Below are positions 27,009 through 63,840 of a stretch of DNA of 64,000 bases, one piece after another. The notes below the pieces were generated by a model. The model saw nothing but the letters and a program-made list of their open reading frames with translations. It was not told where the DNA came from and searched no databases. Each line of letters opens with the position of its first letter. Within the stretch, counting starts at the first letter, position 1. This DNA comes from Phycisphaerales bacterium AB-hyl4. GTDB taxonomy: Bacteria > Planctomycetota > Phycisphaerae > Phycisphaerales > Phycisphaeraceae. A program made the position numbers and the translations under genes. The stretch is from positions 26,339 through 90,338 of the forward strand of contig JBGUBD010000014.1 of NCBI GenBank assembly GCA_041821185.1, given 5' to 3'.

Positions 27009-28136
27009 ATGCCCCCTACACGAACCCAAATCGCAAAGCGGTCGAACGTCTCCGTCTCGCTGGTTTCGCGTGTCTTGAATGGTGATCCGACGCTGCGAGT
27101 GCGGGAAGAAACCCGCAACCGCATCGTGGCGGTTTACAACGAAATGGGGGGGGGGGGAGACCCCGGGGAGGCAAGCGAAGCTGAGCAGGAACCGCGTCGA
27201 ATTTCGCAGCGGCTGGCGCACAACATCGTATTGCCGATGGATCGGGCTTTCGAAAATCTGTCAAAGCCGCTGTTTACCAGCACGGTAGCCGTGCTCGTGC
27301 AGAATCTGCAGGCGGAACTTCAAAAGGCAGGCTTTCGCTTGAGCGTTGTCTTCTTCGATCCACACCGTCGTCGCCAATGGTTTAAAGAGCTGTTGGGTGC
27401 GAAAAACTACGGGGATGGCCTGTTGCTGCTGGGTGGCGTCCTGAATGACGAGTTTGCTCGGTTGCTCATCCGGAGCGGTTACCCACACGTCAGTATCGAC
27501 TCTCGTGACGAGCAGCGAGGGGCTCATACGGTCATGGTGCATAGCCTTGGCGGAATGAGGCTTGCCGTTCAACATCTGCGCGAGTTGGGGCATCAGCGCA
27601 TTGGCTTTTTGGGGCCTCGGGAAGCCCCGCGGTTACCCCAGTTTACCATGGCAATGTGTGAAGCCCATATGCCGATAGAAGAGGCCTGGCATTGTTTTGC
27701 TCCTGGTTACGATGTGGCGATGTCGGAAGATGATTGGCGAACGATCGGCCGGGATGTCATGGGGCATTGCATTGACGGTCGAGTCGCACGGGACGTCGGG
27801 CATGCGACGGCATTCATCTGCCACAACGACCGTCTTGCCTTGGGGGCGGTTGATGCGCTGCGGCAGCGCGGCTTGGAGCCGGGCAAGGATCTGTCTCTAG
27901 TCGGCTACGACAATATGGAAGATCGCATTCACGAAGCAGCGCCGGCTGTGCCGATTTTGAGCACGATCGACAATCCGATGGACCTTGTCGGGCAGATTTG
28001 CGCGCGTCGTCTGATCAACCAGATCGTACATGGCCAGCACGATGTCGTTCATGAGTATGTTCCTACAAAGCTGATCGTTCGCCAGACAACGGGGATATGC
28101 GTTGAATCGCAATCACACATGATGGTTGCGAGGTAA
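27009..28136 (+). CDS. LacI-family transcriptional regulator A
   Basis: 375 residues from the ATG at 27009 (GAGG and AGGA upstream). The HTH is TRTQIAKRSNVSVSLVSRVL, and the periplasmic-binding-protein-like sensor domain starts near residue 95 (FTSTVAVLVQNLQAELQKAG, DGLLLLGGVLNDEFARLLIR, HLRELGHQRIGFLGP, FICHNDRLALGAVDALRQRG, LSLVGYDNM). Such proteins repress sugar genes until a sugar ligand binds. It heads cassette A: pseudopilin and DUF4838 enzyme follow on the same strand. Odd feature: a run of 12 G (27146-27157) just after the HTH region, where LacI proteins usually have YxPN, followed by an acidic insert. One-base slippage would abolish the sensor domain. Confidence 0.88.
   Translation: MPPTRTQIAKRSNVSVSLVSRVLNGDPTLRVREETRNRIVAVYNEMGGGGDPGEASEAEQEPRRISQRLAHNIVLPMDRAFENLSKPLFTSTVAVLVQNLQAELQKAGFRLSVVFFDPHRRRQWFKELLGAKNYGDGLLLLGGVLNDEFARLLIRSGYPHVSIDSRDEQRGAHTVMVHSLGGMRLAVQHLRELGHQRIGFLGPREAPRLPQFTMAMCEAHMPIEEAWHCFAPGYDVAMSEDDWRTIGRDVMGHCIDGRVARDVGHATAFICHNDRLALGAVDALRQRGLEPGKDLSLVGYDNMEDRIHEAAPAVPILSTIDNPMDLVGQICARRLINQIVHGQHDVVHEYVPTKLIVRQTTGICVESQSHMMVAR
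27146..27157 (+). repeat. Poly-G tract (12 G) inside the LacI gene
   Basis: Twelve consecutive G bases, read as the end of ATG plus GGG GGG GGG and the start of GGA. A homopolymer of this length is the classic substrate for slipped-strand phase variation, and it is not needed to encode glycine. Confidence 0.9.
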
Positions 28137-28229
28137 CGGCAGGGGATAAGGCTTCTGTTGCCTGGCTTGATATAGAGTATCCAATCCATATTATCTTCAT
28201 CACTTATCGTACCTGGAAGGAGCGTAGAG

Positions 28230-28961
28230 ATGCGTCGAGAAAAGGGTTTTACGCTGATCGAATTGCTGGTGGTTATTAGTATTACCTCGCTATTAATCGC
28301 AATTCTCTTGCCGGCGCTGAGCGCCGCACGGAGGTCGGCGCAGGCGATCGAGTGCATGAGTAAGCTGCGGCAAATTGGGATAGGCATGCAAGTCTACAGT
28401 TTTGACCATGATGACTATTTTCCTCCGGCTCGATTCGAGTATCTCGGGACTACCAACTATTACTGGGCGCACATGCTCGATCGCCGTGAGTATTTCCCTG
28501 CCGGCGCAGACTGGGAAAATCACCTGTGCCCTCAAGCTCCGAACAAGGGGAGGACAGGTCTATTCGGCTTCCCCGGCTGGAACTGGTGGTTTACTTCCTA
28601 CGGGTACAACATCCACTACGTCGGCGGATCCTACTTTGAGTCTGGAGTGAGTAATGACACGCCGGCAAAAACGATGCAAATTCGAAATCCGTCAACGACG
28701 TTGGTGCTTGCCGATGCGTCCAGTGCGAATGCTACCGGATACTTTGCCGACGAATACACGGGTTACAATCACATCTGGTCGACTTCCACGATCGCCAATT
28801 CCGGCCGACCGGATCCACGTCATAGCGACGCGGCGAACATCGCGTGGGCGGACGGGCACGCCAGTGCCGTGAAATCCCCCACAGGTCAGTGGCAAGGCCT
28901 GTATGAAGAAGGTGTGCTTGGGAACCCAAACTATGCTGGCAACGCTTGGGACCGAAACTAG
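28230..28961 (+). CDS. Pseudopilin with H-X9-DG C-terminal motif (cassette A)
   Basis: 243 residues; AAGGAG upstream of the ATG. The N-terminus is a type IV prepilin signal, [20 protein letters not shown] with Gly before Phe and Glu at +5, followed by [24 protein letters not shown] as in other planctomycete members. The C-terminus has [12 protein letters not shown], fitting the H-X9-DG signature. Predicted to be processed by a prepilin peptidase and assembled in, or transported by, a type II-secretion-like system. Between LacI A and the DUF4838 gene. Confidence 0.9.
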
Positions 28962-29012
28962 ATCACTCCGCACCGGATGTCCGCCGTCGGAGACACCGCG
29001 AAAGGATTCAGC

Positions 29013-31598
29013 ATGGGTTTTTCAGAATGCGTAGCCGCGTTATCGAACGCGGTCGACTGCTCGAAACGGATCGGCTCCTCTGTACATGCGTGCCCGGAGG
29101 TCTTCGTCATATCTCGGGCTCCTGCCTGGATGCTGGCCATACTAGTCATGGCAAGCGTTGTGTCAGGCCATGAATCGCCAGCGATGACACTGGTGGATAG
29201 GGGCGAGGCGCGGGTCGTTGTGGTGGTGGCGGATGAGCCGACTGCCATCTCGCTTCTCGCCGTCGATGAACTGGTATTGCATGTGGAAAAGGCGACGGGC
29301 GTCACATTGCCTGTCGCTCGCGAGTCCAGCATTCCAGACGGCTATGGATCACGTCTCTACTTGGGGAACACCAAGGCTGCTGCCGCGCAAGGTATCGATT
29401 CTGAGAGCATGGAGCCGGATGCATTCCTGCTGAGGACGGTAGAGGCCGATCTGTATGTGGTGGGCAGAGAGGATGGCCTGCTTGTAAGTAAGCCAGTCAT
29501 GTACGGCACCGGCTCGTATGGATACAGCGGAACACTGTTCGGCGTTTACGAAGTGCTGGAACGGTACGTGGGGGTGCGGTGGTTGTGGCCAGGTGATCTG
29601 GGTACCTATGTGCCCCGCACGAAGGCGGTGGTGATCGATTCGCTTGATGAAATGGTGCGAATGAAGCTGCAGCGCCGCCAATTCGGCGTGTCGTGGATTC
29701 GGAGGGCAGTTGAAAACTATTCGTCCCGCATGGAACGGATTGCCTTTTCGGAAGACGGGCTCCGAAACTACGCTCGAGACCTGGAGGTGTATCTGAGGCG
29801 GCACAGGGTTGGGGGCGACCGCTCCCATCCATATGTAGACCACCGCTTCCATGATTGGTGGAGTCGCTACGGAAAGGAACACCCCGAGTGGTTTATGATG
29901 AACAAGGCGGGCGAGCGCACGGGGCCAGCCTTGTGTGTGTCCAATCCAGACTTGCACCGTTTCATCGTGGATCAGGCTTGGGATGGCAGCGCCGAAGACC
30001 GATGGCATCTAAACATTGGAGAAGTCGATGTCCGGGTGTATTGCCAGTGCGAAACGTGCCTGGAGTGGGATCGGCCTCAGCCGAAGGGGTTTGCCGAATA
30101 CTCTACATCGAATCGCTATGCCCGGTTTTGGAAGGCGGTGCGAGACCTGGCAGTGGAACGCAATCCGAAGGCGCTTCCTAAAACCTTTCTGTACATGAAT
30201 TACACTCATGCCCCCACGATCGACATTGATCTTTCAGGTATCTATGGAGAGTTTGTTCCATGGTTTTCGGGATTTAATCCGTATTACCCAATGCCCGACA
30301 GGGAGCACGCATATCTGAAGCAGCAGTGGCGTGACTGGAGTCGGACTGGCATTACGATGGCGTACCGTCCGAACTATCTGCTGGGTGGGTACGTGTTGCC
30401 GCATCTGAGCACGTGGCAGGCTGGGGATATGTTTCAGTTCGCATACCGGCATGGAATGGTCGGCCATTACTATGATTCACTCTGGGGGCAGTGGGCAGTA
30501 CGGGGGCCGATGTATTACATCCACATGCGCCTCTCAGCCGACCCGGAGGCGGACATCGAGGTGTTGCGTGAGGAATTTTTTTCCTCGTTCGGCCCAGCGG
30601 CAAAAGAAGTAGAAGCATATTTCAATTACTGGGAGTCATACTCTCGGCATGAAGCTCCAAGAGGTGGGGTGGATTGGCACGACCCAAGGCGGGCGCATAT
30701 GGCCTATCCCCCAGAAGTGTTCGGTCCTGCCGAGCGGATTCTTGATAGGGCAATGAGCGCTGCGCGTGAGAGTGCGAGTAGCGAATTCTCTGAGCGCGTG
30801 GAGTTTCTCCAGTCGGGCTTGAAGCATACGCGGCTGTCATTGGAATTCATCGGCACGCTCGGGCATCAGGGTGCGATCCCTCGGGATGATAAGGAGCGGT
30901 TTCGTACCGTTCGTGAAGCGATGGAGAGGTTGGTTCAGTTTCGGCGTGCACACGAACACATGTATATCGCCGATTATGTCGCTGCTGCTACGATTGAGAT
31001 GAATCGAATCGACTTGGACGTGCTTTATGAAGCGTTCGAAGATGTGAGGGTAGATGCCGCGTCTGACTCTGCTGAAATGCCTTGGGGGCAGTGGTACTTC
31101 CGAAAGGATGAGCAGGGTGTGGGTATAAAGCAGGAGTGGTTTATCGCAGACCTGGATAAGACTAGCAAAGGCATTCAACAGTACGACGATGGCGGCGTTG
31201 CGTACTTGATCGACCGTCAGTACTGGATGCCTGTGCGGGTGCCTGCCCGACTGTCCGAAACGCCTGCGGGGGACTACCTGGGCTACGGCTGGTATGTAAC
31301 TACATTCAATATGCCCAAGTTATGGACGGAACAGTCGGTGCGTCTGCGGTTTGAAGGCGTTGACGAACAAGCGTGGGTCTATGTCAACGGGAAGATGGTT
31401 GGCGAGCATACGGTCGAATCTGAGAACAAGCCTGTCGAGGAACTTTGGGACCGTCCGTTTGAAATAGAAGTGGCCTCGGAAAGCTTTATACCGAATGGTG
31501 AAAACCTGCTTGTCGTGCGGATACACGCTTCGTCTGGAGCTGCAGGGATATGGGGCCCCGTTCAGGTGTATGTGATGGACGCGGAGCCCGCTGACTAA
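29013..31598 (+). CDS. Exported DUF4838 glycan-active protein (cassette A)
   Basis: 861 residues from the ATG at 29013, with AAAGGA six bases upstream; an ATG at 28977 lacks a site. Hydrophobic export segment WMLAILVMASVVSG near residues 40-52. The N-terminal domain resembles the alpha-glucuronidase/hexosaminidase accessory domain (LAVDELVLHVEKATGVTLPV, SRLYLGNTKAA). The DUF4838 core includes YSGTLFGVYEVLERYVGVRW, LWPGDLGTYVPR, HPEWFMMNKAGERTG, VSNPDLHRFIVDQAWDG, CQCETCLEWDRPQPKG. A C-terminal galactose-binding-like beta domain (QSVRLRFEGVDEQAWVYVNG, NLLVVRIHAS) ends it. Family members are predicted glycoside hydrolases of polysaccharide loci; the exact bond is unknown. Close paralogue of 47101-49575. 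Confidence 0.85.
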   Translation: MGFSECVAALSNAVDCSKRIGSSVHACPEVFVISRAPAWMLAILVMASVVSGHESPAMTLVDRGEARVVVVVADEPTAISLLAVDELVLHVEKATGVTLPVARESSIPDGYGSRLYLGNTKAAAAQGIDSESMEPDAFLLRTVEADLYVVGREDGLLVSKPVMYGTGSYGYSGTLFGVYEVLERYVGVRWLWPGDLGTYVPRTKAVVIDSLDEMVRMKLQRRQFGVSWIRRAVENYSSRMERIAFSEDGLRNYARDLEVYLRRHRVGGDRSHPYVDHRFHDWWSRYGKEHPEWFMMNKAGERTGPALCVSNPDLHRFIVDQAWDGSAEDRWHLNIGEVDVRVYCQCETCLEWDRPQPKGFAEYSTSNRYARFWKAVRDLAVERNPKALPKTFLYMNYTHAPTIDIDLSGIYGEFVPWFSGFNPYYPMPDREHAYLKQQWRDWSRTGITMAYRPNYLLGGYVLPHLSTWQAGDMFQFAYRHGMVGHYYDSLWGQWAVRGPMYYIHMRLSADPEADIEVLREEFFSSFGPAAKEVEAYFNYWESYSRHEAPRGGVDWHDPRRAHMAYPPEVFGPAERILDRAMSAARESASSEFSERVEFLQSGLKHTRLSLEFIGTLGHQGAIPRDDKERFRTVREAMERLVQFRRAHEHMYIADYVAAATIEMNRIDLDVLYEAFEDVRVDAASDSAEMPWGQWYFRKDEQGVGIKQEWFIADLDKTSKGIQQYDDGGVAYLIDRQYWMPVRVPARLSETPAGDYLGYGWYVTTFNMPKLWTEQSVRLRFEGVDEQAWVYVNGKMVGEHTVESENKPVEELWDRPFEIEVASESFIPNGENLLVVRIHASSGAAGIWGPVQVYVMDAEPAD

Positions 31599-31805: not shown

Positions 31806-31881
31806 CCGGCCGGCCTCGCTGGGGCTGATGCTGATCGGCGGCGCGTGTATGATGCTGCGGCGCAGGCACGGCGTCGCGTGA
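31806..31881 (+). pseudogene. PEP-CTERM tail fragment (fossil of cassette A surface protein)
   Basis: In one frame up to TGA at 31881 the sequence reads RPASLGLMLIGGACMMLRRR: PAS, one membrane helix and an Arg cluster, the C-terminal sorting signal of PEP-CTERM proteins without the rest of the gene. Cassettes B and C have full PEP-CTERM genes, so this is probably the eroded counterpart in cassette A. Confidence 0.65.
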
Positions 31882-31972: not shown

Positions 31973-32767
31973 ATGTGGTGGCATGAGACATCCTGGCCGA
32001 CGATAGACGCGTTGCCGAAGGATCGGCCGGTGGTGATTCCGCTTGGTGCCTGCGAGCAGCACGGCCGACACCTGCCCGTGTTCGTTGACACGATTCAGGT
32101 CACCGCCATCGCCGAGCAGGTCGAGCGTCGCCTGGCCGAGCAGGTCATCGTTACGCCCACGTTCTGGCTGGGCTCGTCGCATCATCACCTGGACTTCCCT
32201 GGCACGGTCAGCGTTCGGCCGACGCTTTACACCCAGGTGATCCAGGACGTCGCACGCAGCATCCTCCGCGCCGGCTTCCGACGCTTGTTCTTCCTCAACG
32301 GCCACGGCGGCAACGAAGTGCCCGGCGCTCAAGCCTTGGCGGACCTGGTTGCCACGGACGACCTGGCCGACGCGGCGCACCTGACCTTCGCCTCCTGGTG
32401 GCAGGTCGGCGGGCAGAGTCTCAAAGCCGATCGGCACGATATGGCATCGCCCCAGATTACGCATGCCTGCGAATATGAAACCTCGATGATGCTGTTCCTT
32501 CGCCCCGACCTCGTCCAGCAACAGTTGGCACAGGACGTTGAATTGGTGCTCGACAAGCAGTGGTGCGTCACCGGCGGGGTTAAGGTGTTCCGCCGATTCC
32601 ATCGCCTCACCGACACGGGCAACATGGGATCGCCTTCGACTGCCAGCAGTGAAAAAGGCCAATCCATCTGCAATGCCGTAGTGGATGACATCGTGGCGTT
32701 CCTTGAGTCATTCGCTGGATGGCCTGACCTGCCGGCCCAAGGCCCAGTCCGCCAGGGTGGCCAGTGA
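31973..32767 (+). CDS. Creatininase-family amidohydrolase
   Basis: 264 residues from the ATG at 31973 (AAGGGCGTGG upstream). Metal-binding motif GACEQHGRHLPVFVDT (E, H, D ligands) and the conserved NGHGGNE, plus HACEYETSMMLFL with the late Glu. The family hydrolyses cyclic amides or removes formamide groups; planctomycetes have many members of unknown substrate. First gene of the catabolic operon; followed 103 bp later by the DapA-like gene. Confidence 0.88.
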   Translation: MWWHETSWPTIDALPKDRPVVIPLGACEQHGRHLPVFVDTIQVTAIAEQVERRLAEQVIVTPTFWLGSSHHHLDFPGTVSVRPTLYTQVIQDVARSILRAGFRRLFFLNGHGGNEVPGAQALADLVATDDLADAAHLTFASWWQVGGQSLKADRHDMASPQITHACEYETSMMLFLRPDLVQQQLAQDVELVLDKQWCVTGGVKVFRRFHRLTDTGNMGSPSTASSEKGQSICNAVVDDIVAFLESFAGWPDLPAQGPVRQGGQ

Positions 32768-32870
32768 CTGCCGAATACGATCCGTACAATCCACTTTTGG
32801 CCTGAGCATGACGAACTCATGCAAGCGTCGTATCAATCACGAATCACCGCTACGAATAGGAAATGTTGCC

Positions 32871-33812
32871 ATGGGCGGCCCTGACGTCAACCCGACCAAG
32901 AACCTTCGCGGTGTGCTGCCTGTCTTTCAGATGCCATACCACGATGACGAATCGATCGACTACACAACGCTCGATCAGCACATCGACTGGATCTACGAGC
33001 AAGGGGCCCACGGCCTCGTGTTCGCCATGGTTTCGGAAGTGCTTCGCCTTTCCGACAGGGAACGACGTCAGGTGGCAGAGCATCTTTGCAAGACCAACCG
33101 CGACCGGGGGGCCGTGATCATCAGCGTTGGCGCGGAAAGCACCCACACGGCCTGCGAACTGGCCCGGCATGCCGAATCGGTCGGCGCCGATGCGATCATG
33201 GCCATCCCCCCCGTCTCGACCGCTATCGACGAAGCGGAACTGCGTCACTACTACGACCGCCTCGCAAATGCGTTGACCATTCCCGTCATCGTCCAGGACG
33301 CCAGCGGGTATGTCGGCAAGCCCATGTCGATCGACTTCCAGGCGGCGCTGCGCCGCGACCTGGGCGACCGCATCATGTTCAAGCCCGAAGCCACTCCCAT
33401 CGGCCCGCGGCTGTCCGCCCTGCGTGAAGCAACGGCAGGTCAGGCTGACATCTTTGAAGGCACGGGGGGGATCGCCCTGGTCGACAGCTACCGTCGCGGC
33501 ATCGTCGGAACCATGCCCGGCGGCGACCTCGTCTGGGCCCTCGCCGCGTTGTGGCAGGCGCTGGAGGCCGGCGACGACCAGCGCACTTACCGTATCTCGC
33601 TGCCGCTCTCGTCACTGGTGGCGATCCAGACCAGCCTCGACAGCTTCCTCGCGGTCGAAAAGTACCTGCTGCAGAAACAGGGCGTGTTCCCGAACACAGT
33701 CGTGCGCGGGCCGCGCGGCTACCAGCTCGATGAGGAAACCCGACAGGAGGTCGATCGACTGTTCGATCTGCTCACCGCTTCGGTCTACGACATGGCAGGG
33801 GAGTCGGCATGA
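32871..33812 (+). CDS. DapA/NanA-family aldolase or dehydratase
   Basis: 313 residues from the ATG at 32871 (TAGGAAATG upstream). TIM-barrel class I aldolase family: NLRGVLPVFQMPYHDDESID, HGLVFAMVSEVLRLSDRER, VIISVGAESTHTACELARHA, GADAIMAIPP, and the Schiff-base lysine in RIMFKPEATP. The catalytic-Tyr region is IVQDASGYVG, so the usual YNxP is altered. Members cleave 2-keto-3-deoxy sugar acids or form dihydrodipicolinate; the operon favours the first (inference). Overlaps the next gene by 4 bp. Confidence 0.85.
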   Translation: MGGPDVNPTKNLRGVLPVFQMPYHDDESIDYTTLDQHIDWIYEQGAHGLVFAMVSEVLRLSDRERRQVAEHLCKTNRDRGAVIISVGAESTHTACELARHAESVGADAIMAIPPVSTAIDEAELRHYYDRLANALTIPVIVQDASGYVGKPMSIDFQAALRRDLGDRIMFKPEATPIGPRLSALREATAGQADIFEGTGGIALVDSYRRGIVGTMPGGDLVWALAALWQALEAGDDQRTYRISLPLSSLVAIQTSLDSFLAVEKYLLQKQGVFPNTVVRGPRGYQLDEETRQEVDRLFDLLTASVYDMAGESA

Positions 33813-34678
33813 TCATTGACGTGCACAGCCACGCGTGGCAGTACCCGCGCCATTTCAATGATGACTTCCGCGAGCAGGCCCGCCAGGCACGCAACGGTGA
33901 GGAAGTCGACCTGACCGTGCAGTACGAGGCCTACGCCGCCGCTGCACCCGCCGAGACGCGCAACATCGTGTTTGGGGGCAAGGCGCGATTGTCCGGCCTG
34001 TGGGTCGACGACGACTATGTCGCCGACTACGTCGCCCGCCACCCCGACCGCGTGCTCGGCTACCTCTCCGTCGATCCCACGCAGGATGGCTACGAAAAAG
34101 ACATGCGACGCGGCCATGAGGAGCTGGGCCTTTGTGGCATCAAGCTGTTGCCGATGTACGCCGGCTTCGAGCCGCAGGACGATCGGCTCGACCCGCTGTG
34201 GCGATACGCCGCCCGTCATCGCCTGCCCGTGTTGTTGCACACGGGCACGACCTTCATCCGGCAGGCGCCGCTGCATTGCACCTTGCCCCGGCACATCGAT
34301 GCCGTGGCCCGACGCCATCCCGACGTGACGATTGTCATGGCTCACCTGGGCCACCCGTACGAAGGCGAGTGCGTGGCTGTGATTCGCAAGCATCCCAATG
34401 TCTATGCCGACATCAGCGCCCTGCACTACCGCCTCTATCAGCTTTACAACAGCCTGATGCTGGTACAGGAGTACGGTGTGTGGAACAAGCTCCTGTTCGG
34501 CAGCGACTATCCTTTCACCACCGTCAACGCGTCAATTGAGGGCCTGCGACACCTCAACGACATGGTCGAGGGCACGTCTCTGCCTCGGCTGGACGAAAAG
34601 CAGATCGAAGCGCTGATCCATCGCGACAGCCTGCATCTGCTGGGCCTGGCGGACAAACTGCGTTCAGCATCCGCGTAA
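33809..34678 (+). CDS. Amidohydrolase family 2 protein, possible sugar lactonase
   Basis: 289 residues. TIM-barrel amidohydrolase-2 motifs: VHSHAW (HxH metal ligands, residues 5-7), LLHTGTTF, IVMAHLGHPYEG and FGSDYPFTT (catalytic Asp). Relatives include fuconolactonase and 2-pyrone-4,6-dicarboxylate hydrolase, as well as decarboxylases. With an SDR and a sugar-acid dehydratase alongside, lactone hydrolysis is the best guess. ATGA overlap with the aldolase gene. Confidence 0.85.
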   Translation: MIIDVHSHAWQYPRHFNDDFREQARQARNGEEVDLTVQYEAYAAAAPAETRNIVFGGKARLSGLWVDDDYVADYVARHPDRVLGYLSVDPTQDGYEKDMRRGHEELGLCGIKLLPMYAGFEPQDDRLDPLWRYAARHRLPVLLHTGTTFIRQAPLHCTLPRHIDAVARRHPDVTIVMAHLGHPYEGECVAVIRKHPNVYADISALHYRLYQLYNSLMLVQEYGVWNKLLFGSDYPFTTVNASIEGLRHLNDMVEGTSLPRLDEKQIEALIHRDSLHLLGLADKLRSASA

Positions 34679-34742
34679 CGCGAGCCGTACGATAAACGCC
34701 GGGCAGCCGTGCCTGGTTGAATAAGCAGACGGAAGGACAACA

Positions 34743-35165
34743 ATGGACGCAACGATACAACCGCAATGCAAAGCTCCGGTGTTTCCCAATGGGCAGGACA
34801 CATCGGTCGCGCCGTATTCGCCGGGGCTGCGTGTCGGGCCGTGGGTCTTCGTGTCCGGACAGGGGCCGTTAAACTTTGAAACGATGCGTTTTGAAACGGA
34901 TCGGGGCATCGAGCACGAGGCACGACTTACGCTTGAGAACGTGCGATCCGTGCTGGAGGCGGCCGGTTGCAAACTGACCGACGTGGTCAAGGTCACGGTC
35001 TACTTGCAGAACATGAACGACTTTGTCCGGTTCAATGAGGTCTACAAGCAGGTTTTCGCTGAACCCTGGCCGGCTCGCACCGCGGTGCAGGCGGTGCTGG
35101 GCGCGGGAATCTCCATCGAAATCGACGCCATCGCCATTGCCGGCTGCGGCAGCGACGGGGCTTGA
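34743..35165 (+). CDS. ridA: RidA/YjgF-family enamine/imine deaminase
   Basis: 140 residues; AAGGAC upstream. Typical fold and residues: PYSPGLRVGPWVFVSGQGP, LTLENVRSVLEAAGCKLTDV, VKVTVYLQNMNDF, the catalytic Arg in WPARTAVQAVLGAG and Glu in IEIDAIA. RidA proteins hydrolyse reactive imines, or act as pathway-specific deaminases when encoded in catabolic operons. Symbol in the family sense. Confidence 0.88.
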   Translation: MDATIQPQCKAPVFPNGQDTSVAPYSPGLRVGPWVFVSGQGPLNFETMRFETDRGIEHEARLTLENVRSVLEAAGCKLTDVVKVTVYLQNMNDFVRFNEVYKQVFAEPWPARTAVQAVLGAGISIEIDAIAIAGCGSDGA

Positions 35166-35192
35166 ACATGACACGCGGAAAGGAACACAGCG

Positions 35193-36089
35193 ATGGCCGA
35201 GCCGTTGCAGGTATTTAATCAATCGTGCTTCGCCGGGCGGGCGTATGGCGTGACTGGCGGGTCGCGTGGCATTGGCAGGGCGGTGGTGCAGGGACTGCTC
35301 GATTGCGGCGCCTCGGTCATGACGCTGGCACGCGACAGCGCGACCCTGGAACGGCTCGAAGCGTCCTTGCCCGACGAGCAGCGGGCGCGTCTGCTCTGGC
35401 GTGCCGCCGACGTGAGTTACGCCGACGTGTTGCGTGAAGCGGTCGATGCGGCCGGCGAGAAGTTCGGCCGAATGGACGGCTGGGTCAGCAACGCCATGTG
35501 CAACCCCGGCCAAAGCCTCGCCGATCATGACGAAAGCAGCTTCGAGCAGGCGTGGCAGGTCAACACGCTGGCCGCCTGGCGTGCGGCGAAGCTGCTGCAA
35601 CCGCACTTCGAGCGGGTCGGCGGCGGCGCGCTTGTTCACGTCAGCTCTGTCATGGCCCAGCAGACCGTGCCCAACCAGACCGCCTACACCAGTTCCAAGG
35701 CCGCCCTGGAAGGCCTCACCCGCGCATTGGCGGTGGAGCTTGCCACGCTGCGCGTGCGGGTGAACACCGTGGTCGCCGGTTTCGTGTTGACCTACTCCGG
35801 CATGCCTGATCGCGAGTCGTGGACCGAGCGTGAGCGCCTCGCCGCCGAGGTGGTCGAGGAGGTGAATTACCATTCCCACCCCTGGCCGGGCGCGGGAATG
35901 CCGGAGGACGCGGCCGCCACCGTGCTCTTCCTGCTCTCCGATGCAGCTCGATTCGTCACCGGCACCACGCTGGTGGTCGACGGCGGCATGACCGTGGACC
36001 TGCGCCTCTTGGCCGATACCCGTCGAGTGGCAGCGGCCCAGCGGATCGGGCAACTTCAGCAAAAGCAGGAGGAGTTTGGCGATGAGTAA
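35193..36089 (+). CDS. Short-chain dehydrogenase/reductase
   Basis: 298 residues. NAD(P)-binding TGGSRGIG at 21-28, catalytic Ser near 151-152 (VHVSSVMAQ), and YTSSK with Tyr165 and Lys169; C-terminal TTLVVDGGMTVD. Longer than the usual 250 by a C-terminal tail. Likely oxidises a sugar or sugar acid in the operon (inference). Overlaps the next gene by 8 bp. Confidence 0.9.
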   Translation: MAEPLQVFNQSCFAGRAYGVTGGSRGIGRAVVQGLLDCGASVMTLARDSATLERLEASLPDEQRARLLWRAADVSYADVLREAVDAAGEKFGRMDGWVSNAMCNPGQSLADHDESSFEQAWQVNTLAAWRAAKLLQPHFERVGGGALVHVSSVMAQQTVPNQTAYTSSKAALEGLTRALAVELATLRVRVNTVVAGFVLTYSGMPDRESWTERERLAAEVVEEVNYHSHPWPGAGMPEDAAATVLFLLSDAARFVTGTTLVVDGGMTVDLRLLADTRRVAAAQRIGQLQQKQEEFGDE

Positions 36090-37245
36090 TGTTGTCGCGA
36101 CACCACGCGTGGTCCGTGTGCGGGCATGGGAAGTGGTCGTGCCCGTCGTGCCCGGCGCGGTGAACAGCCCCGCGTTGGAGGACGCTGCCGAAAGTGAGCC
36201 GTGGGATGCCGCGCCGATCGTGCTGGTGGAGTTGACGTTCGATGACGGCGTCATCGGGCTGGGCGAACTGCCGCGCGATGTGACACTCAAAACCGTGGAC
36301 GCGTCATTGGCGAGGCTGGTCGGTCTGACCTGCCCCGGACCGTCGATGGCAGCACAGCCCAGTGCCTGGCGGCCCGGCAACATGTTCGGCCTGCATCAAC
36401 TCATGCCCGCCCCCGCCTGGCAATCCACGCAACTCGCTGCGGCGGCACTGGAGACGGCGCTGCTTGACGCGACCGGCAAACGCCTGGGCTGTCGCGTGGT
36501 CGACTTGCTCGGCGGGGCTGTGCGGCAGCGCGTCAGTGTCGACTACTGGTGCGGTCGCCAGACGCCAGCCGACCTGGAAGTCATCGTGGGCCGAGCGCTT
36601 GAGCACGGCTTCCGGGGCTTGAAGATGAAGTCGCGTCTCGGCGACCCTGTCATTGAACAGCTGCGCGTCATTCGCCAGATCGCCGGCGAGGGCTTCGCCG
36701 TCACGATCGACCCGATGTTTCAATGGCTTTCGCCCGCCCACGTCCTGCCGATGGTCAAGGCCATCGATCATTGCAACCTGGCGGTAAAGTTGGAAGACCC
36801 ATTCCCGCAGGATCAGCCGCAGATGTGGCAGCGCTTGCGCGACGCGGTGGCGACACCGCTGATCTGGCATGCCCGCGATGCGGTGTCGTTGCGTCGCGGA
36901 TTGCAGGCTCGTTGCGTTGACGGCTTTAATGCCTCCGACGGCTACTGCTGGGGCTTCCTCGGCCAGGCCCACGCCCTTGAAGCTTTGGGCTTGCCGTGCT
37001 GGCAGGGATCATCCATCGAACTGGGCGTCGCCCAGGCGGCCCGGCTGCATGCCTGCGCCGCAGCGCCGGCATGTGTCTGGCCCAGCGATCTTGTCGGCGC
37101 CGCCATCCGCCAGCACACCCTGACCACTTGGGACTGGCCCTACGACGCAGGTTACTTGCCACTGCCCACGGCTCCCGGCCTCGGCGTCGAACTCGACTAC
37201 GACGCCGTCGCTCATTTCGCACAAGTCGCATGCGATCATGAATAA
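36082..37245 (+). CDS. Enolase-superfamily (mandelate racemase-like) sugar-acid dehydratase
   Basis: 387 residues from the ATG at 36082 with AGGAGGAG upstream; a TTG at 36076 would add two residues. N-terminal capping domain (VLVELTFDDGVIGLGELPRD) and barrel with GLKMKS (KxK acid/base), metal ligands in VTIDPMFQW and KLEDPFP; the third ligand is not obvious at PLIWHARDA, where many members have an Asp or Glu. C-terminal GSSIELGVAQAARLHACAA is typical. Proposed to dehydrate a sugar acid to a 2-keto-3-deoxy acid, the substrate of the DapA-like aldolase. Confidence 0.85.
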   Translation: MSNVVATPRVVRVRAWEVVVPVVPGAVNSPALEDAAESEPWDAAPIVLVELTFDDGVIGLGELPRDVTLKTVDASLARLVGLTCPGPSMAAQPSAWRPGNMFGLHQLMPAPAWQSTQLAAAALETALLDATGKRLGCRVVDLLGGAVRQRVSVDYWCGRQTPADLEVIVGRALEHGFRGLKMKSRLGDPVIEQLRVIRQIAGEGFAVTIDPMFQWLSPAHVLPMVKAIDHCNLAVKLEDPFPQDQPQMWQRLRDAVATPLIWHARDAVSLRRGLQARCVDGFNASDGYCWGFLGQAHALEALGLPCWQGSSIELGVAQAARLHACAAAPACVWPSDLVGAAIRQHTLTTWDWPYDAGYLPLPTAPGLGVELDYDAVAHFAQVACDHE

Positions 37246-50540: not shown

Positions 50541-51674
50541 CTACATGAAAGTACGACTTGATCCCGCTGAATCAGGTTTCCAATTGGCACGACCCCGTCT
50601 TGCCGGATCTGAAGAAGCCCGAACAACCAGCTCCGGCAACAAGAGTCGATTTTCCAGCGACGTCTTCTTTTGGCCTGATTTCAACTGATCGATCAGCATT
50701 TCGACTGCGATGCGACCAATGCCTGCGGGCTGGCAAACCGTTGACAATGGAACCGCAAGGTGAGCCGCAAACGCCTGACCGTCGAAACCGATCACAGCCA
50801 CATCCTCCGGGACGCGCACACCAGCATGCGTCAGGACATCCATCGCTGTTAGCGCCACCTGATCAGATGTCGCCACCACGCCGTCGACGAACTCCCCCGA
50901 CTCCAGCAACGCGTTCGCGGCACGCCGGCCGAACTCATAGCCGCTGTCCACTTCGTCCCGAAAAAACAGATGCTCCTCCCGCGACGAACCACACTCCTCC
51001 AACGCCATCGTGAACCCGTCCATCTTTTGCGCCGCGGGATCCGCCTGACTGCCCATGCCCCCCGGCATGAAAAACGCCAATCGACGGCACCCCGCATCCT
51101 CCATCAGGTGCTTGACCTGAAGATACGCGCCCCGAACGCGATCCACCGCTACGTTCGGGACATGAACCACGTTGGCGGCGTCTATCGTTACCGCCGGCAG
51201 GCCCGTCGACAACAACCACTGTATTTGTTCTTCGACCTCATGGCTGGGCATTAAGATGACGCCTGCCACTTGGTAGCTCAGATAATCCGCCAGAAGCGAC
51301 TGGATCTCGTCACGCCCCCGGCCATGATGGTTGCGGATGAGCACCTGGTATCCCGAGGCGATGACATGACGCTCTACCTCCGCGAGTTTCGCCATGGGAA
51401 TCGGGTGCATGTCGAGCGAGTGAAACGCCAGACCGATCAGGTTGGATTCCTGCGACCTCAGCGATCGCGCGATCTGATTCGGTCGATACTCCACCTTCTT
51501 AGCCGCAGAAAAGACCCGGGCCCGGGTTACTTCCGAAGCCCAGGAAGTCTTCTCCCCCCGCAAGATCGCCGAAGCGGTACTCACTGCCACCCCCGCCTCA
51601 CGAGCCACGGTCGAAAGGGTCACGCGCTTCCGGCCCGTCTTGCTACGAGGTTGATCAGGTACGATTGAGGCCAT
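50541..51674 (-). CDS. LacI-family transcriptional regulator B
   Basis: 377 residues from the ATG at 51674; an upstream start at 51719 overlaps the operator. HTH VTLSTVAREAGVAVSTASAI with hinge YRPNQIARSLRSQESNLIG, sensor domain HVIASGYQVLIRNHHGRGRD, VAGVILMPSHEVEEQIQWLL, DGVVATSDQVALTAMDVLTH, VAVIGFDGQAFAAHLAVPLS. Heads cassette B. Two near-palindromic sites upstream point to autoregulation with DNA looping. Confidence 0.92.
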   Translation of the reverse strand: MASIVPDQPRSKTGRKRVTLSTVAREAGVAVSTASAILRGEKTSWASEVTRARVFSAAKKVEYRPNQIARSLRSQESNLIGLAFHSLDMHPIPMAKLAEVERHVIASGYQVLIRNHHGRGRDEIQSLLADYLSYQVAGVILMPSHEVEEQIQWLLSTGLPAVTIDAANVVHVPNVAVDRVRGAYLQVKHLMEDAGCRRLAFFMPGGMGSQADPAAQKMDGFTMALEECGSSREEHLFFRDEVDSGYEFGRRAANALLESGEFVDGVVATSDQVALTAMDVLTHAGVRVPEDVAVIGFDGQAFAAHLAVPLSTVCQPAGIGRIAVEMLIDQLKSGQKKTSLENRLLLPELVVRASSDPARRGRANWKPDSAGSSRTFM

Positions 51675-51719
51675 AAAAAGAGCCTGAACAAGGTTTGGTA
51701 AGAGAATGACCACCGTCAT

Positions 51720-59796: not shown

Positions 59797-60477
59797 ATGA
59801 AACCTCGCGCTTTCACCCTGATTGAGCTTCTGGTCGTGATCTCAATCATTGCGGTGCTGATCGCTTTGCTGCTGCCTGCACTGCAATCGGCACGCCAGAG
59901 CGCGCAAGCGATCTCGTGCCTGTCGAACTTCCGCCAGATCGGCGTTGCGCTGCTTCAGTATGCGGACGACTCGCCTGGTGGTGAACGGTTGCCTCAATCC
60001 GCAGGGGTGACCCTGGAGGGGCATTCGGTATGGGGTATTCTCGCCGTTCGGCCTTATTATTTCGGGGGCGTAAATGGCAGATACTGGTGGCGCGACGGCT
60101 CGCCAATTACCCCTTTGGACATTGAGAAATGTCCTTCGGGAGGCCATGTCCGTCCATATTCCATGGATCATCTCGGTCACACCTATATTACGATGTATCA
60201 AAATGCGGCGCCCGACCATCCCAACTACATACGTACTTTCCGTACCAGCTATGATCGCCCGTCGGAAACGCCACTCATTTTCGACTCGGACTTCTACAAC
60301 GCCACAGGCACTACGTATGGTTCGCCACATTGGTGGTTAAACAGCCTCATCGGCGACCGCCATCAAGGGTCCATCAATCAGTGGTATCTCGATGGCCACG
60401 CCAGCCGTGTGCAGATGGATGAAAAGTACGTCGACAGCTCTTGGCTGCACCGCCTCTTTACGCAATTTCGATACTGA
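59797..60477 (+). CDS. Pseudopilin with H-X9-DG motif (cassette C)
   Basis: 226 residues from the ATG at 59797, with AAGGAG seven bases upstream. [20 protein letters not shown] prepilin signal (Ala before Phe), then [20 protein letters not shown], and [12 protein letters not shown] near the end fits H-X9-DG. Here it follows rather than precedes the PEP-CTERM gene. Confidence 0.9.
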
Positions 60478-60585: not shown

Positions 60586-63500
60586 ATGAACCAGCGAACC
60601 AACGGGCGTGCTCTGACGATCCTGTCAGGCATGGTCGCGTGCCTGTTCACCGCCACGGCGTTCGACACGGCGGGCGCTTCCGAAGGGCCGACGCTCGCGT
60701 CGATCGAGCCACTGGCTCGCGAGGTTCAGGAAAGTGTTTCGTTTGAATCGCTGCCTGCCACGGGCAAGTTCGCTCACCGGGCGTTTCGCAACTCGGATTT
60801 TGTCAGAAGAGCCGGCAAGACCGTTCTCAACTGGCAGCCGGCGGAGCAGGGGCAGGTCTGGCTGCATGTCCCTGCGGTGCCCGAGGACTGGTCCGGCTAT
60901 GACGAACTGGTGCTGCATCTCGAATCGGCCAGGGCCACCGGTGCAAAGATCAACCTTCAACTGCGCAGCACCGGCGACCGGGACGAAGGCTACTACCTGA
61001 CGCAGTTCGAGGTGGACTGGCGAGGCCCGCGAACGCTTCGCCTTTCGTTGGACGACGATTTCACCGGCCACCGCGCGCCGGCGGGCATGGCTCGCATCGA
61101 AAGCATGATGTTCGGCGCAAGCGGCTGGCGGGCTGAACCGATTGCAGGCACGCAACTGAGGGTATTGGACATGCAACTGGTCAAGATTGCCCACCCGGTC
61201 GAGTCATTGCTTGCCAGGGAAGGGCGACAGATCTGGGACGCGCCGAACTTCAACCGACGCAACTACAGTGGGGCTGTGTTTCATGTCAATCATCGCGAAG
61301 GCGACGCGACCGTCGTCGACTTGAGTTATCAGGCTGACTCACCGCTGGCGGACGAACAGCCGGCCAACCTCGAACTGCGCGTGTTCAACCCGGAAGATCG
61401 CTGCGTGCTCACGGCCGACCTTTCGCGAGAAGGCCCGCAGTGGTACAGCACGCAGATTGACCTGTCCGACCAGCCGGCCGGTCGATATCGCATTTCGATC
61501 ACCGGCTATCACCGGGGCCTTGCGCTCGCAGCCGAGCCCGCCCAGCCAATCGGCGTGACCGGAGCCTACACGCTGGGACTGCCCGGCCATGTGTCGGACC
61601 AGTACATCTACCTGCCGCGTGATGCGAGCTTCTGGGAGCTTTGGGTTGCCGCCCGCGCGCCGGGGCAGGCGATTGAAGTGTATGACGTGGATGATCGGTT
61701 GGTGAAGACAGTGGAGGTACCCGTTGAGCCGACGGGTTGGAAGCGTGTGCGGTTCGATGACGTTGAAGGCGACAGCGTCTGGCGTCTGCATGCGACAGGC
61801 GGCCGCGAGTTCCGCGTGGCGGTGCTGGGCGTGCCGAGCGTGATGTGGCCCGACCGTGCGTCGGCCGAGGCGTACGGCCGAAGCGTGCGCCATATCGCTG
61901 GGCGTCGTGTGACCCACGGCTGGCAGGTGCCGATGGCGACCTGGCTGGCGGAGGTCAGCGAAGCCGATCTGGCGCTGAACGTGGATGAACCGAGCCGACC
62001 TGACTTTTCGCAGATGTCGGATGATCAGATGCTCAAGCTCGTGCCGATGGTCGGCGCCTACGGTCCGTTGAGCCAGGGGCCGGACCTGATGGAGCATCAG
62101 CTGCTCGACATCGATGCGCCGCAGTTGGGCGTGTTTGCCTACGACCTGGCGGACATACCCGACGAGCCGATCAACCCCGACTGGGCTTCGCCGTTTCGTG
62201 ATACACGTTACCTGAACACTTTGGCATGGCTGTATGCGTATGAAGCGGACGGGATCAACCCCTACTACCGCAATCCGGGTCTACTCAATCGCATTATGGC
62301 CGGCGTATTCCAGCTGTGGCTGGCAGTGGGCGAACGCCAGGCGGTGTTTTCCGAGCGTGCCGACCGCCCGGTGCTCGATACGCATATGTTTTTCTTTCTG
62401 GAGCCGATTGCCAGTATTTACAAACTCATTGGCGACGACATGCCTGAGCCGTTGCAGCAGGCCTACCGCGACGGGCTGGTTGAGCTGTTCGGTCGATACG
62501 CCTACCACACCGCGTTCATGAGTAACCAGTGGGGCCACCTCCTGCTTGGCCTTTACGACGCTGCCGAGGCCACAGGCGACCCGCTTCTCGCCGCGGCGTA
62601 CGAACGCAACCTTACCATGCTGATCAACCACACCGCCGGTAGCACGAACCTCGGCCAATCGCCGGCTGGCTATTACTATGAATTCGGCGGCCTTGATGGC
62701 ATTTACAACATCATGAACGAGCACGCGTGGAGCCTGCTCTACCGCAACAGCGGCGACGAACGCCTGCGCGACAGCGTGGCTCGCAGCTTCGAGCTTCGCC
62801 GACATCTCACCGTCACCGGTGCCGACGGCGACCTCGTCTCGGCGCGCAACTGGAACCATCGCACGAACAGCGGACTCGCGGGCGGCTACCCCGCCGCGCG
62901 ATTGCTGGCCGACTGGCCCGTCGCTTCACGATTCGTACACCGTGACCCGCAACAAGGTGAAGGTCACACCAATATTTCGTGGACCGTCTGGCACCCCGAC
63001 GCCGCGCGTGCGACACTGGAACACTGGTGGATGCGCTCGGTCGGCTTTGATCGGCTTGGCGATCGACAGGGGCTCGCCGGTCCATTGGGCGCTAACCTCA
63101 GCTACCACGCACCGCCGATTGCCCAGCCGGGCCAACTTGCCTGTGAAGAGCCGGGCCCGTTCGTCCGCCACTTTGCGGATGAGTTCACGGCTGGACGATT
63201 CGGGCCGTGGTACGCCGTGCTGTATCGGGGCGGGGCTCATTCGGATCGTGCCTTTGGCGGCAGCGGGCTGGCAACGCTCTGGCATGAACGGTTCGGCCCG
63301 ATCATGCTCGGGCACACACCGATCAACGGTGACCATACCCCCTCCACGGACGAGCCCGACGGTGTCATTCTGACGCTCACTGACGCATGGACAACACCGA
63401 CCGACGAGCGTCGCTCAACCTACAAAGCCCACGGCAAACTCACCGGCGATGTTGATCGTGCCGAGCTGGCGAGCACGCTCACAACCGGCGGCGACGATGT

Positions 63501-63840
63501 GTTCGAGCGGTCCTACACCTTCCAGGGCCAACGCATGACCAGCCGCGGCAGTCACACCAGCGGGGCGGGTGCGAACCACACGCTGTACCTGCCGATCGTT
63601 GTCGGGCCGAATGTCGAGGTGGTTGCGTCGAGCGAAACGCATGGCAACGTGGAACTCACCGTCGGCCAGTCCGCGGCGATACAGCAGATCACGTGGCGGC
63701 TGGACGGGCATGTCCTGCGCATGACCTTTGAGCAACCGGTGCCGATGACAGTGGTGCGGGAAGAACAGCTTGCAACGACGCCCTTACGCATCATTCGTCT
63801 GGACTTCAACGACCAGCCCGGACGCTGGACAGTCGAATAG
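60586..63840 (+). CDS. Large exported polysaccharide-active protein (cassette C)
   Basis: 1084 residues. Signal peptide (LTILSGMVACLFTATAFDTA). Residues about 45-205 form a CBM-like beta-sandwich (QVWLHVPAVPEDWSGYDELV, INLQLRSTGDRDEGYYLTQF), then further beta domains (DQYIYLPRDASFWELWVAAR). Residues about 540-790 look like an alpha/alpha toroid (YLNTLAWLYAYEADGINPYY, YHTAFMSNQWGHLLLGLYDA, GYYYEFGGLDGIYNIMNEHA), followed by a beta-rich C-terminus. The order toroid then beta-sandwich resembles polysaccharide lyases of the heparinase II/III or chondroitinase type, but I cannot name the family; conserved N, H, Y and R in the toroid (FMSNQWGH, SARNWNHRTNS) could be catalytic. The substrate-binding lectin and LacI gene upstream support a glycan role. 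Confidence 0.7.
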   Translation: MNQRTNGRALTILSGMVACLFTATAFDTAGASEGPTLASIEPLAREVQESVSFESLPATGKFAHRAFRNSDFVRRAGKTVLNWQPAEQGQVWLHVPAVPEDWSGYDELVLHLESARATGAKINLQLRSTGDRDEGYYLTQFEVDWRGPRTLRLSLDDDFTGHRAPAGMARIESMMFGASGWRAEPIAGTQLRVLDMQLVKIAHPVESLLAREGRQIWDAPNFNRRNYSGAVFHVNHREGDATVVDLSYQADSPLADEQPANLELRVFNPEDRCVLTADLSREGPQWYSTQIDLSDQPAGRYRISITGYHRGLALAAEPAQPIGVTGAYTLGLPGHVSDQYIYLPRDASFWELWVAARAPGQAIEVYDVDDRLVKTVEVPVEPTGWKRVRFDDVEGDSVWRLHATGGREFRVAVLGVPSVMWPDRASAEAYGRSVRHIAGRRVTHGWQVPMATWLAEVSEADLALNVDEPSRPDFSQMSDDQMLKLVPMVGAYGPLSQGPDLMEHQLLDIDAPQLGVFAYDLADIPDEPINPDWASPFRDTRYLNTLAWLYAYEADGINPYYRNPGLLNRIMAGVFQLWLAVGERQAVFSERADRPVLDTHMFFFLEPIASIYKLIGDDMPEPLQQAYRDGLVELFGRYAYHTAFMSNQWGHLLLGLYDAAEATGDPLLAAAYERNLTMLINHTAGSTNLGQSPAGYYYEFGGLDGIYNIMNEHAWSLLYRNSGDERLRDSVARSFELRRHLTVTGADGDLVSARNWNHRTNSGLAGGYPAARLLADWPVASRFVHRDPQQGEGHTNISWTVWHPDAARATLEHWWMRSVGFDRLGDRQGLAGPLGANLSYHAPPIAQPGQLACEEPGPFVRHFADEFTAGRFGPWYAVLYRGGAHSDRAFGGSGLATLWHERFGPIMLGHTPINGDHTPSTDEPDGVILTLTDAWTTPTDERRSTYKAHGKLTGDVDRAELASTLTTGGDDVFERSYTFQGQRMTSRGSHTSGAGANHTLYLPIVVGPNVEVVASSETHGNVELTVGQSAAIQQITWRLDGHVLRMTFEQPVPMTVVREEQLATTPLRIIRLDFNDQPGRWTVE

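What the first reader, a model, noticed from the sequence alone, without database searches (positions are those of the whole stretch)
27009..63840. Recurring four-part cassette: LacI regulator + H-X9-DG pseudopilin + PEP-CTERM surface protein + large secreted glycan enzyme
Three versions occur within 37 kb: A (27009-31881, with only a PEP-CTERM fossil), B (46026-51674) and C (57531-63840, gene order altered and a different enzyme class). Each has one local repressor, one prepilin-signal protein with H-X9-DG, one exosortase-sorted protein and one big exported enzyme. Seen directly: gene order and motifs. Inference: a planctomycete equivalent of a polysaccharide utilisation locus, in which the pseudopilin and the exosortase-sorted lectin replace SusC/SusD in capturing glycan. 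I know of no described function for the pairing of these two surface classes in one regulated unit.
Basis: partly seen in the sequence, partly recalled or inferred. Interest (0 to 1): 0.8.

Follow-up and report, generated by a model that had tools for sequence, protein, structure and literature searches.

The report
Sugar-sensor, pilin and glycan-enzyme gene cassettes
This bacterium carries about forty look-alike gene sets in which a sugar-sensing switch stands next to a pilus-type surface protein and one or more large, often glycan-cutting proteins, which may show how such bacteria grab particular complex sugars with tailor-made pili.

Summary
All three cassettes exist; the PEP-CTERM remnant of A is weak, and C's gene order is one of two common ones. 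Genome-wide, 43 of 53 LacI-type-sensor genes have a prepilin-motif gene within 5 kb (random mean 9.7, maximum 20 in 3000 draws), 36 downstream on the same strand and 0 upstream on it. I read 40 cassettes: all hold a gene above 400 aa, 25 a PEP-CTERM-like protein. Partners include PL8, GH20, GH123, GH5, GH42, heparinase-like and DUF4838 proteins. The link recurs in the window's own family (18 of 20 LacI loci), other families of the class (12 of 20) and one Lentisphaerae genome (9 of 11), not in other classes of the phylum (3 of 20). DUF4838 genes in general lack pilins. Best reading: separately regulated glycan operons whose most constant surface element is a dedicated pilin, PEP-CTERM optional. 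Glycan capture by the pilin is inference. No operator was found, and signs of regulator-pilin-enzyme co-divergence vanished without recent duplicates.

The parts
27009..28136 (+). Cassette A: LacI-family regulator with Peripla_BP_3 sugar-sensor domain
   Evidence: PF00356 37.1 bits and PF13377 84.1 bits, both over cut-off
28230..28961 (+). Cassette A: type IV pilin-like H-x9-DG protein (243 aa), next gene after LacI
   Evidence: N_methyl 35.7 bits and PF07596 24.5 bits, over cut-off; F1, E5, Cys pair and H-x9-DG in alignment
28977..31598 (+). Cassette A: large DUF4838 + GH2-type sugar-binding protein (start probably at 29130 or 29184)
   Evidence: PF16126 82.2 bits, PF02837 51.7 bits; starts
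31810..31881 (+). Cassette A: PEP-CTERM-like tail remnant without PEP tripeptide or mature domain
   Evidence: translation ends PASLGLMLIGGACMMLRRRHGVA*
31973..37245 (+). Genes after A: creatininase-family, DHDPS-family, amidohydrolase, RidA-type, SDR and enolase-superfamily proteins; possible intracellular sugar-acid catabolism (inference)
   Evidence: Pfam hits over cut-off for each of the six genes
46026..46928 (-). Cassette B: protein with PEP-CTERM-like tail
   Evidence: tail IPEPGMVGLVGLGALMFIKRRGTPSAN; PF07589 16.7 bits, under cut-off
47101..49596 (-). Cassette B: DUF4838 + GH2_N protein
   Evidence: PF16126 98.4 bits, PF02837 38.4 bits
49724..50467 (-). Cassette B: type IV pilin-like H-x9-DG protein (247 aa)
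   Evidence: N_methyl 22.7 bits over cut-off; motif in alignment
50541..51719 (-). Cassette B: LacI-family regulator
   Evidence: PF13377 96.3 bits, PF00356 39.0 bits
57531..58628 (+). Cassette C: LacI-family regulator
   Evidence: PF00356 47.5 bits, PF13377 74.8 bits
58691..59611 (+). Cassette C: concanavalin-like lectin-fold protein with PEP-CTERM-like tail
   Evidence: Laminin_G_3 34.6 bits over cut-off; PF07589 12.7 bits, under cut-off; tail [26 protein letters not shown]
59797..60477 (+). Cassette C: type IV pilin-like H-x9-DG protein (226 aa)
   Evidence: N_methyl 28.8 and PF07596 25.2 bits, over cut-off; alignment
60586..63840 (+). Cassette C: 1084-aa protein of unknown family, apparent signal sequence
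   Evidence: no hit in Pfam up to E 1, NCBIfam up to E 0.001, or PDB sequences up to E 1

Best explanation
Each cassette is a separately controlled operon for one kind of complex glycan. A regulator with a periplasmic-binding-protein-like sugar sensor (LacI type, or another DNA-binding head on the same sensor) controls a type IV pilin-like H-x9-DG protein, one or more large proteins that are often glycan-active, and in about 60% of cassettes a PEP-CTERM-like surface protein. The pilin has a constant, polymerisation-competent N-terminal helix and a constant Cys/H-x9-DG frame around a very variable middle. I propose it is inserted as a substrate-specific subunit or tip into a pilus or pseudopilus built by shared machinery encoded elsewhere, where it binds the target glycan and brings it to the cognate enzyme. 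Shown: gene order, strand, motifs, enrichment, recurrence in related genomes, presence of assembly genes. Inferred: induction by the glycan product, glycan binding by the pilin, assembly into a filament, retraction-driven capture.
For: 43 of 53 sensor-type regulators have a prepilin gene within 5 kb, 36 downstream on the same strand and 0 upstream on the same strand; random means 9.65, 2.45, 2.52. Same-strand 1-kb bins from 0 to 10 kb downstream hold 19, 8, 4, 3, 2, 2, 0, 2, 0, 0 regulator-pilin pairs; expected about 0.55 per bin. 40 cassettes read, 40 of 40 with a gene over 400 aa. Families of the 58 large partner genes include DUF4838 (8), GH2_N (6), Laminin_G_3 (6), GH123 (3), GH67N (3), GH42 (2), CBM9 (2) and a PcRGLX-like protein (25 of 84 families shown); single cassettes show PL8, GH20, GH5, heparinase-like and an ABC sugar-importer-like fusion. 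In 38 aligned pilins F1 and E5 are invariant; in 40, Cys42, Cys100, His198 and Asp208 are each at 97% and median identity beyond residue 60 is 21%. Assembly genes exist: a PilT over its cut-off (432.6 against 319.1 bits) beside a PilB/GspE-type ATPase, PilO, a PilM-like protein under cut-off and a secretin, and a T2SS cluster with GspD, E, F, G, J, K, M domains over cut-off. The arrangement recurs in 18 of 20 LacI loci of the family (expected 3.3, at most 4.8), 12 of 20 of other families of the class (3.3, at most 4.0) and 9 of 11 sensor genes in one Lentisphaerae genome (1.3, at most 3.7). Literature: gold-labelled dextran sits on pili-like fibres of planctomycetes (PMC5394234, passages) and a 'fishing rod' pilin hypothesis is in print (PMC12078418, section 5).
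Against: No operator: CG-centred palindromes are not enriched (4 of 74 regions at p up to 0.05, 3.7 expected), so co-regulation rests on gene order only. Regulator-pilin co-divergence (r 0.19, p 0.001) falls to r 0.08, p 0.13 when near duplicates are removed (37 of 40 kept); the closeness of pilins with homologous first enzymes (p 0.003) falls to p 0.19 in the same way. 52 of 94 prepilin genes have no such regulator within 5 kb. PDB sequences match the N-terminal part only, so no glycan-binding fold is shown. 29 of 58 large partner genes show no signal sequence by a crude test on my gene starts. 23 of 40 first large genes have no BLAST homologue among the other 39, and window C, L002 and L090 have no known family. 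Four of 58 are FAD-oxidoreductase-like. In other classes of the phylum LacI genes are not linked to pilins (3 of 20; expected 1.2 to 2.4). In one of two further Lentisphaerae genomes sampled the link is absent (0 of 4 places, G235).
Confidence: 0.55

Rival explanations
1. The pilin is a cassette-specific pseudopilin of the type II secretion system, made to export the partner enzyme rather than to capture glycan.
For: A T2SS cluster with GspD, E, F, G, J, K, M domains over cut-off is in the genome; 29 of 58 large partner genes show a crude signal sequence; the GspG model of NCBIfam matches the N-terminal part of all three window pilins, far under its cut-off (26 to 32 against 88.85 bits).
Against: Known T2SS use one set of pseudopilins for many substrates (recalled). 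The cassette pilins are 200-297 aa with a hypervariable middle, unlike the GspG of the same genome (135 aa); no T2SSG domain shows in the window's three pilins.
Confidence: 0.2
2. The pilins are general adhesins or matrix proteins that sit in nutrient-regulated operons only so that cells attach to the particle that carries the glycan.
For: 52 of 94 pilins lack a sensor regulator within 5 kb; PEP-CTERM proteins are linked to exopolysaccharide matrix in other bacteria (recalled); pilins do not co-diverge with the enzyme once duplicates are removed.
Against: The strict order of regulator, optional PEP, pilin and large gene, and the different large protein in most cassettes suggest pairing with a substrate; general adhesins would not need about 40 separately regulated versions.
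Confidence: 0.2
3. Ordinary clustering: abundant pilin, PEP-CTERM and CAZyme genes fall together in the same accessory regions, with no functional unit.
For: Prepilin (94) and PEP-CTERM (54) genes are abundant; transposase fragments flank A and B.
Against: Null placement gives 9.65 against 43 observed, and 36 downstream against 0 upstream on one strand cannot come from mere co-location; recurrence in other families.
Confidence: 0.03

Closest known systems
Polysaccharide utilisation loci (PULs) of Bacteroidota, SusC/SusD type
   Same: Glycan enzyme plus surface protein plus local sensor-regulator in one co-directional unit, one unit per glycan (recalled definition)
   Different: No SusC/SusD or TonB-receptor hit in the 10 cassette proteins of the window scanned nor in the pilin of C; the constant surface element is a type IV pilin-like protein; regulators are LacI-type sensors
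LacI-regulated CAZyme clusters of Gram-positive bacteria (recalled)
   Same: LacI sensor controlling glycoside hydrolases, sometimes with an ABC importer (one cassette here, L101, has an ABC fusion)
   Different: No pilin as a constant neighbour there, as far as I recall
Bindosome of Sulfolobus solfataricus
   Different: Archaeal; no per-glycan LacI operons with large enzymes recalled; homology not tested beyond weak similarity of the assembly ATPases to the BasE model
Planctomycete 'fishing rod' pili
   Same: Same proposed role; dextran-coated gold sits on pili-like fibres (PMC5394234, passages; PMC12078418, section 5)
   Different: No genes, regulation or substrate pairing named in the passages seen
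SBP_bac_10/DUF1559 N_methyl family expanded in planctomycetes
   Same: Same domain class, 41 or more per Planctomycetales genome, often flanked by genes with signal peptides (PMC8567305, section 18)
   Different: Coupling to LacI-type sensors and glycan enzymes is not reported in that section

Membership tests
Polysaccharide utilisation locus (Sus-type) | SusC/SusD pair in the locus | tested here: not met
   Pfam scan of the cassette proteins of A, B and C shows none; for the other cassettes only 25 of 84 families were shown
Polysaccharide utilisation locus (Sus-type) | Locus-specific regulator and glycan enzymes in one unit | tested here: met
   40 cassettes with sensor regulator and large partner gene; glycan-active families in many, not in every one
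Polysaccharide utilisation locus (Sus-type) | Induction by the cognate glycan | not testable with these tools
   needs expression data
LacI family regulators | LacI HTH plus periplasmic-binding-like sensor | tested here: met
   PF00356 and PF13377 over cut-off in A, B and C
LacI family regulators | Local palindromic operator | tested here: inconclusive
   No enrichment of CG-centred palindromes in 74 regions; only this generic pattern was tried
Type IV pilins | Prepilin motif with F1 and E5, hydrophobic N-terminal helix | tested here: met
   N_methyl over cut-off in A, B and C; F1 and E5 invariant in 38 of 38 aligned
Type IV pilins | Pilin fold of the globular domain | tested here: inconclusive
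   PDB sequence matches cover the N-terminal part only; structure prediction was off
Type IV pilins | Assembly into a filament | not testable with these tools
   assembly ATPases, PilT and secretins present
PEP-CTERM proteins | PEP motif, transmembrane helix, basic tail | tested here: inconclusive
   25 cassette proteins were chosen by my own motif; 20 of 25 match PF07589 at E up to 0.01, but B (16.7) and C (12.7 bits) are under the cut-off of 20.7
PEP-CTERM proteins | Exosortase in the genome | not tested
DUF1559/SBP_bac_10 | PF07596 over cut-off (23.3 bits) | tested here: inconclusive
   A 24.5 bits as a protein but 22.3 in the genome search; C 25.2; B 11.4, under cut-off

The most novel reading that the evidence does not exclude
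A class of glycan-utilisation system in PVC bacteria in which an inducible, substrate-specific type IV pilin takes the place of SusC/SusD: some forty interchangeable pilins per genome, each switched on with its own enzyme by its own sugar sensor and threaded into a shared retractable filament, a bacterial counterpart of the archaeal bindosome and the missing genetics of the planctomycete 'fishing rod'.
Probability: 0.35. Interest if true: 0.88.

Novelty: new variant of a known kind. Interest (0 to 1): 0.72.

Why it matters
How planctomycetes take up large polysaccharides is open; fibres that bind dextran have been seen, but the passages I read name no substrate-specific genes. If right, these cassettes name a pilin, a large partner protein and a sensor for each of about 40 units in one genome and make the question testable gene by gene. 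They also give a simple sign, a pilin next to a sensor regulator, for finding glycan operons where SusC/SusD searches fail, and put large orphan proteins such as that of cassette C on the list of likely new glycan enzymes.

Tried and rejected
Operators: 74 upstream or intergenic regions searched for CG-centred 14-bp palindromes against shuffles; no enrichment. Promoter and terminator scans of A, B and C: site numbers within the noise of shuffles. Co-divergence of regulator and pilin: significant at first, lost after removing near duplicates; the same holds for pilins of cassettes with homologous first enzymes (p 0.003, p 0.19); I claim neither. PEP-pilin co-divergence: none; regulator-PEP r 0.12, p 0.036, not re-tested without duplicates. 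DUF4838 as a cassette marker: rejected. The 30 DUF4838 loci carried only about 1.5 kb of flank, so their tally (1 with pilin, 2 with regulator) was replaced by 20 wider loci. Viral contigs: no relative of enzyme B. A first, stricter pilin motif missed pilins without G/A/S/N before the Phe; recounted with a wider motif.

Counting notes. Contig lengths in the null were partly assumed (sum 4.50 of 4.57 Mb). One search counts 54 regulator genes by my own profile in the fetched loci (one a 147-aa fragment, L106) against 53 by PF13377; two further cassette-like loci seen later (L115, L116) are not in the 40. The pilin alignment used 38 of 40; L019 (200 aa) and L099 (cut at a locus edge) were left out. 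LacI loci of other genomes were picked by me from the listed top rows and longer contigs, not at random; pilins there were found by my motif, while the expectations come from PF07963 counts, which for G176, G053, G036, G238 and G235 scored only the first 150 candidates; one search gives upper bounds from all candidates. One search set the Lentisphaerae count 'within three genes' against a 5-kb expectation; one search repeats it at 5 kb: 9 of 11, 8 downstream on the same strand. That is one genome; four other genomes gave 0 of 4 (G235), 3 of 4 (G237), 1 of 1 (G239) and 2 of 2 (G236) within 5 kb; my regulator profile recognised only 8 regulators in those 11 loci, 3 with a pilin within three genes.
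Full report
OBSERVATION. The window lies in an unnamed 4.57-Mb genome (32 contigs, 97% complete; C14:26339-90338); that it is a planctomycete, and its class Phycisphaerae, is inference. Cassettes A, B and C are present as described. Each has a LacI-family regulator with a sugar-sensor domain, a protein with a prepilin N-terminus and H-x9-DG near the C-terminus, and a large protein; B and C have a PEP-CTERM-like protein whose PF07589 score is under cut-off, A only a weak 23-residue remnant. Genes of a cassette are on one strand with short gaps. The 1084-aa protein of C has no relative in Pfam (E up to 1), NCBIfam (0.001) or PDB sequences (1).

IS IT MORE THAN CHANCE. The genome has 31 LacI HTH hits, 53 LacI-type sensor domains (PF13377), 94 prepilin motifs, 54 PF07589 hits and 12 DUF4838. 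With random placement of the 53 regulators (3000 draws), 9.65 would have a prepilin gene within 5 kb; 43 do (maximum of draws 20). Downstream on the same strand: 36 against 2.45; upstream on the same strand: 0 against 2.52; PEP-CTERM within 5 kb: 26 against 5.8; both: 24 against 3.8; DUF4838: 9 against 1.3, a value that random draws reached (maximum 10). In 1-kb bins, 27 regulator-pilin pairs lie 0-2 kb after the sensor domain on the same strand. The asymmetry rules out a mere shared neighbourhood.

ANATOMY GENOME-WIDE. I fetched stretches around the regulators and called genes with a simple caller of my own. Of 54 regulator genes, 34 have a pilin in the downstream run and 6 only in a divergent run: 40 cassettes. 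All 40 have a gene above 400 aa and 25 a PEP-CTERM-like protein; 19 regulators are followed directly by the pilin and 9 by PEP then pilin. Window A and B are of the first type and C of the second. Of 58 large partner genes scanned, 8 have DUF4838, 6 GH2_N, 6 Laminin_G_3, 4 FAD-oxidoreductase, 3 GH123, 3 GH67N, 2 each beta-helix, GH42, CBM9 and metallophosphatase (25 of 84 families shown). Scanned one by one (19 proteins), they include PL8, GH20, GH123, GH5, GH42, heparinase II/III-like and DUF4962 proteins, CBM9 proteins and one fused ABC sugar-binding protein and permease; window C, L002 and L090 gave nothing and L005, L007 and L095 nothing telling. 23 of 40 first large genes have no BLAST homologue among the other 39. 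29 of 58 show a signal sequence by a crude test. So the regulator and pilin are constant and the large protein varies, as expected for one unit per glycan.

THE PILIN. In 38 of 40 aligned pilins F1 and E5 of the mature form are invariant, a pattern of subunits that enter filaments (recalled). In all 40, Cys42, Cys100, His198 and Asp208 are each conserved at 97%, while median identity beyond residue 60 is 21%. PDB sequences match only the N-terminal part of type IV pilins and GspG. The genome has 13 T2SSE-family ATPases, among them a PilB/GspE-type protein beside a PilT (432.6 bits, cut-off 319.1), PilO over and PilM under cut-off with a secretin, and a T2SS cluster with GspD, E, F, G, J, K, M domains over cut-off. 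Machinery for a retractable filament is thus present; that these pilins use it is inference.

RELATED GENOMES. In 39 genomes of the phylum, the window's included, LacI over cut-off is in 9; 3 of 20 LacI loci of other classes have a pilin within 5 kb, not above chance (1.2 expected, at most 2.4; p 0.12 to 0.45). In the window's own family it is 18 of 20 (3.3 expected, at most 4.8; p up to 4e-10), in other families of the class 12 of 20 (3.3, at most 4.0; p up to 9e-5). DUF4838 taken as a neutral bait across named genomes (the best 80 of 338 relatives were returned) has a pilin motif in 12 of 80 loci, 8 of the 47 that are at least 12 kb; with the stricter motif 10 of 80, a regulator in 5 and both in 4: two Lentisphaerae/Lentisphaeria, one Chthoniobacterales, one Phycisphaerae. 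In the Lentisphaerae genome GWF2_44_16, with 100 sensor genes, 9 of 11 sampled have a pilin within 5 kb (1.3 expected, at most 3.7, p up to 0.0014) and 7 of 11 as the next gene. Another Lentisphaerae genome (G235) gave 0 of 4; three further genomes together 6 of 7. The unit is therefore not private to this genome and occurs in at least two PVC phyla, but is absent from many relatives.

HOW IT MOST LIKELY WORKS. A sugar released from a glycan releases the repressor; pilin, large enzyme and, in some, a PEP-CTERM surface protein are made together; the pilin joins a shared pilus or pseudopilus and binds the same glycan for the enzyme. Steps shown: order, strand, motifs, enrichment, recurrence. Steps inferred: induction, binding, assembly, retraction. 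Against it: no operator signal, no lasting co-divergence of regulator, pilin and enzyme, 52 of 94 pilins without such a regulator within 5 kb, no fold evidence. The PEP-CTERM-like protein is a frequent companion, not a defining part; 4 of 25 have a recognised lectin-like Laminin_G_3 domain.

COMPARISON WITH PRINT. Boedeker 2017 (PMC5394234, passages) saw dextran-gold on pili-like fibres; the word pilin does not occur in its held text. A 2025 review (PMC12078418, section 5) gives the 'fishing rod' hypothesis. A proteome paper (PMC8567305, section 18) notes the expanded N_methyl/SBP_bac_10 family, often flanked by signal-peptide genes. A CAZyme survey (PMC11131199, passages) says that to its authors' knowledge CAZyme clusters of the phylum have not been characterised functionally. 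The archaeal bindosome (PMC4471445, passages) is the nearest precedent for sugar binding by prepilin-type proteins. Ten searches of the held library (lists capped at 8 to 20 papers) showed no title or abstract start that describes LacI-pilin-enzyme units; term look-ups in three PVC papers (PMC5615132, PMC6388578, PMC7356697) found neither pilin nor LacI. Papers outside this library were not seen.

VERDICT. A real, strongly ordered gene unit that recurs across the class; glycan operon likely; pilin as capture device plausible and now testable. New variant of a known kind (PUL-like operon), with a bolder reading not excluded.

Noticed in passing
window 31973-37245: After cassette A comes a run of six genes (creatininase-family, DHDPS-family, amidohydrolase, RidA-type, SDR, enolase-superfamily) that could break down a sugar acid released by the enzyme.
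   Followed up: partly
window 26016-26744 and 45375-46067: Transposase fragments (DDE_Tnp_1_4 and IS110 type) lie next to cassettes A and B; the second overlaps the end of B's PEP-CTERM gene.
   Followed up: no
window 60586-63840: Large protein without any family hit; its sequence made me think of a toroid-type lyase, a guess only.
   Followed up: partly
L101:778-3438 (own genome C4): A cassette whose large gene fuses an ABC sugar-binding protein and a permease.
   Followed up: no
own genome, 58 large partner genes: Four of the 58 are FAD-dependent oxidoreductase-like, unexpected in a glycan operon.
   Followed up: no
L045 and L047 (genome G003, another class): Two LacI genes with a pilin motif 315 bp away divergently and 942 bp downstream, so the link may exist sporadically outside the class.
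   Followed up: no
L115 and L116 (own genome): Two more regulator-PEP-pilin-large gene runs, one with three PEP-CTERM-like genes and two pilins in a row, not in the count of 40.
   Followed up: no
genomes G238 (Lentisphaerae GWF2_44_16) and G234: 100 and 78 genes with a LacI-type sensor at E up to 1e-12 in about 5.2 and 6.0 Mb.
   Followed up: partly
own genome, e.g. L026-L028: 23 of 53 sensor-type regulators lack a LacI HTH hit within 1.2 kb upstream, so the same sensor seems to be used with other DNA-binding heads in similar cassettes.
   Followed up: no
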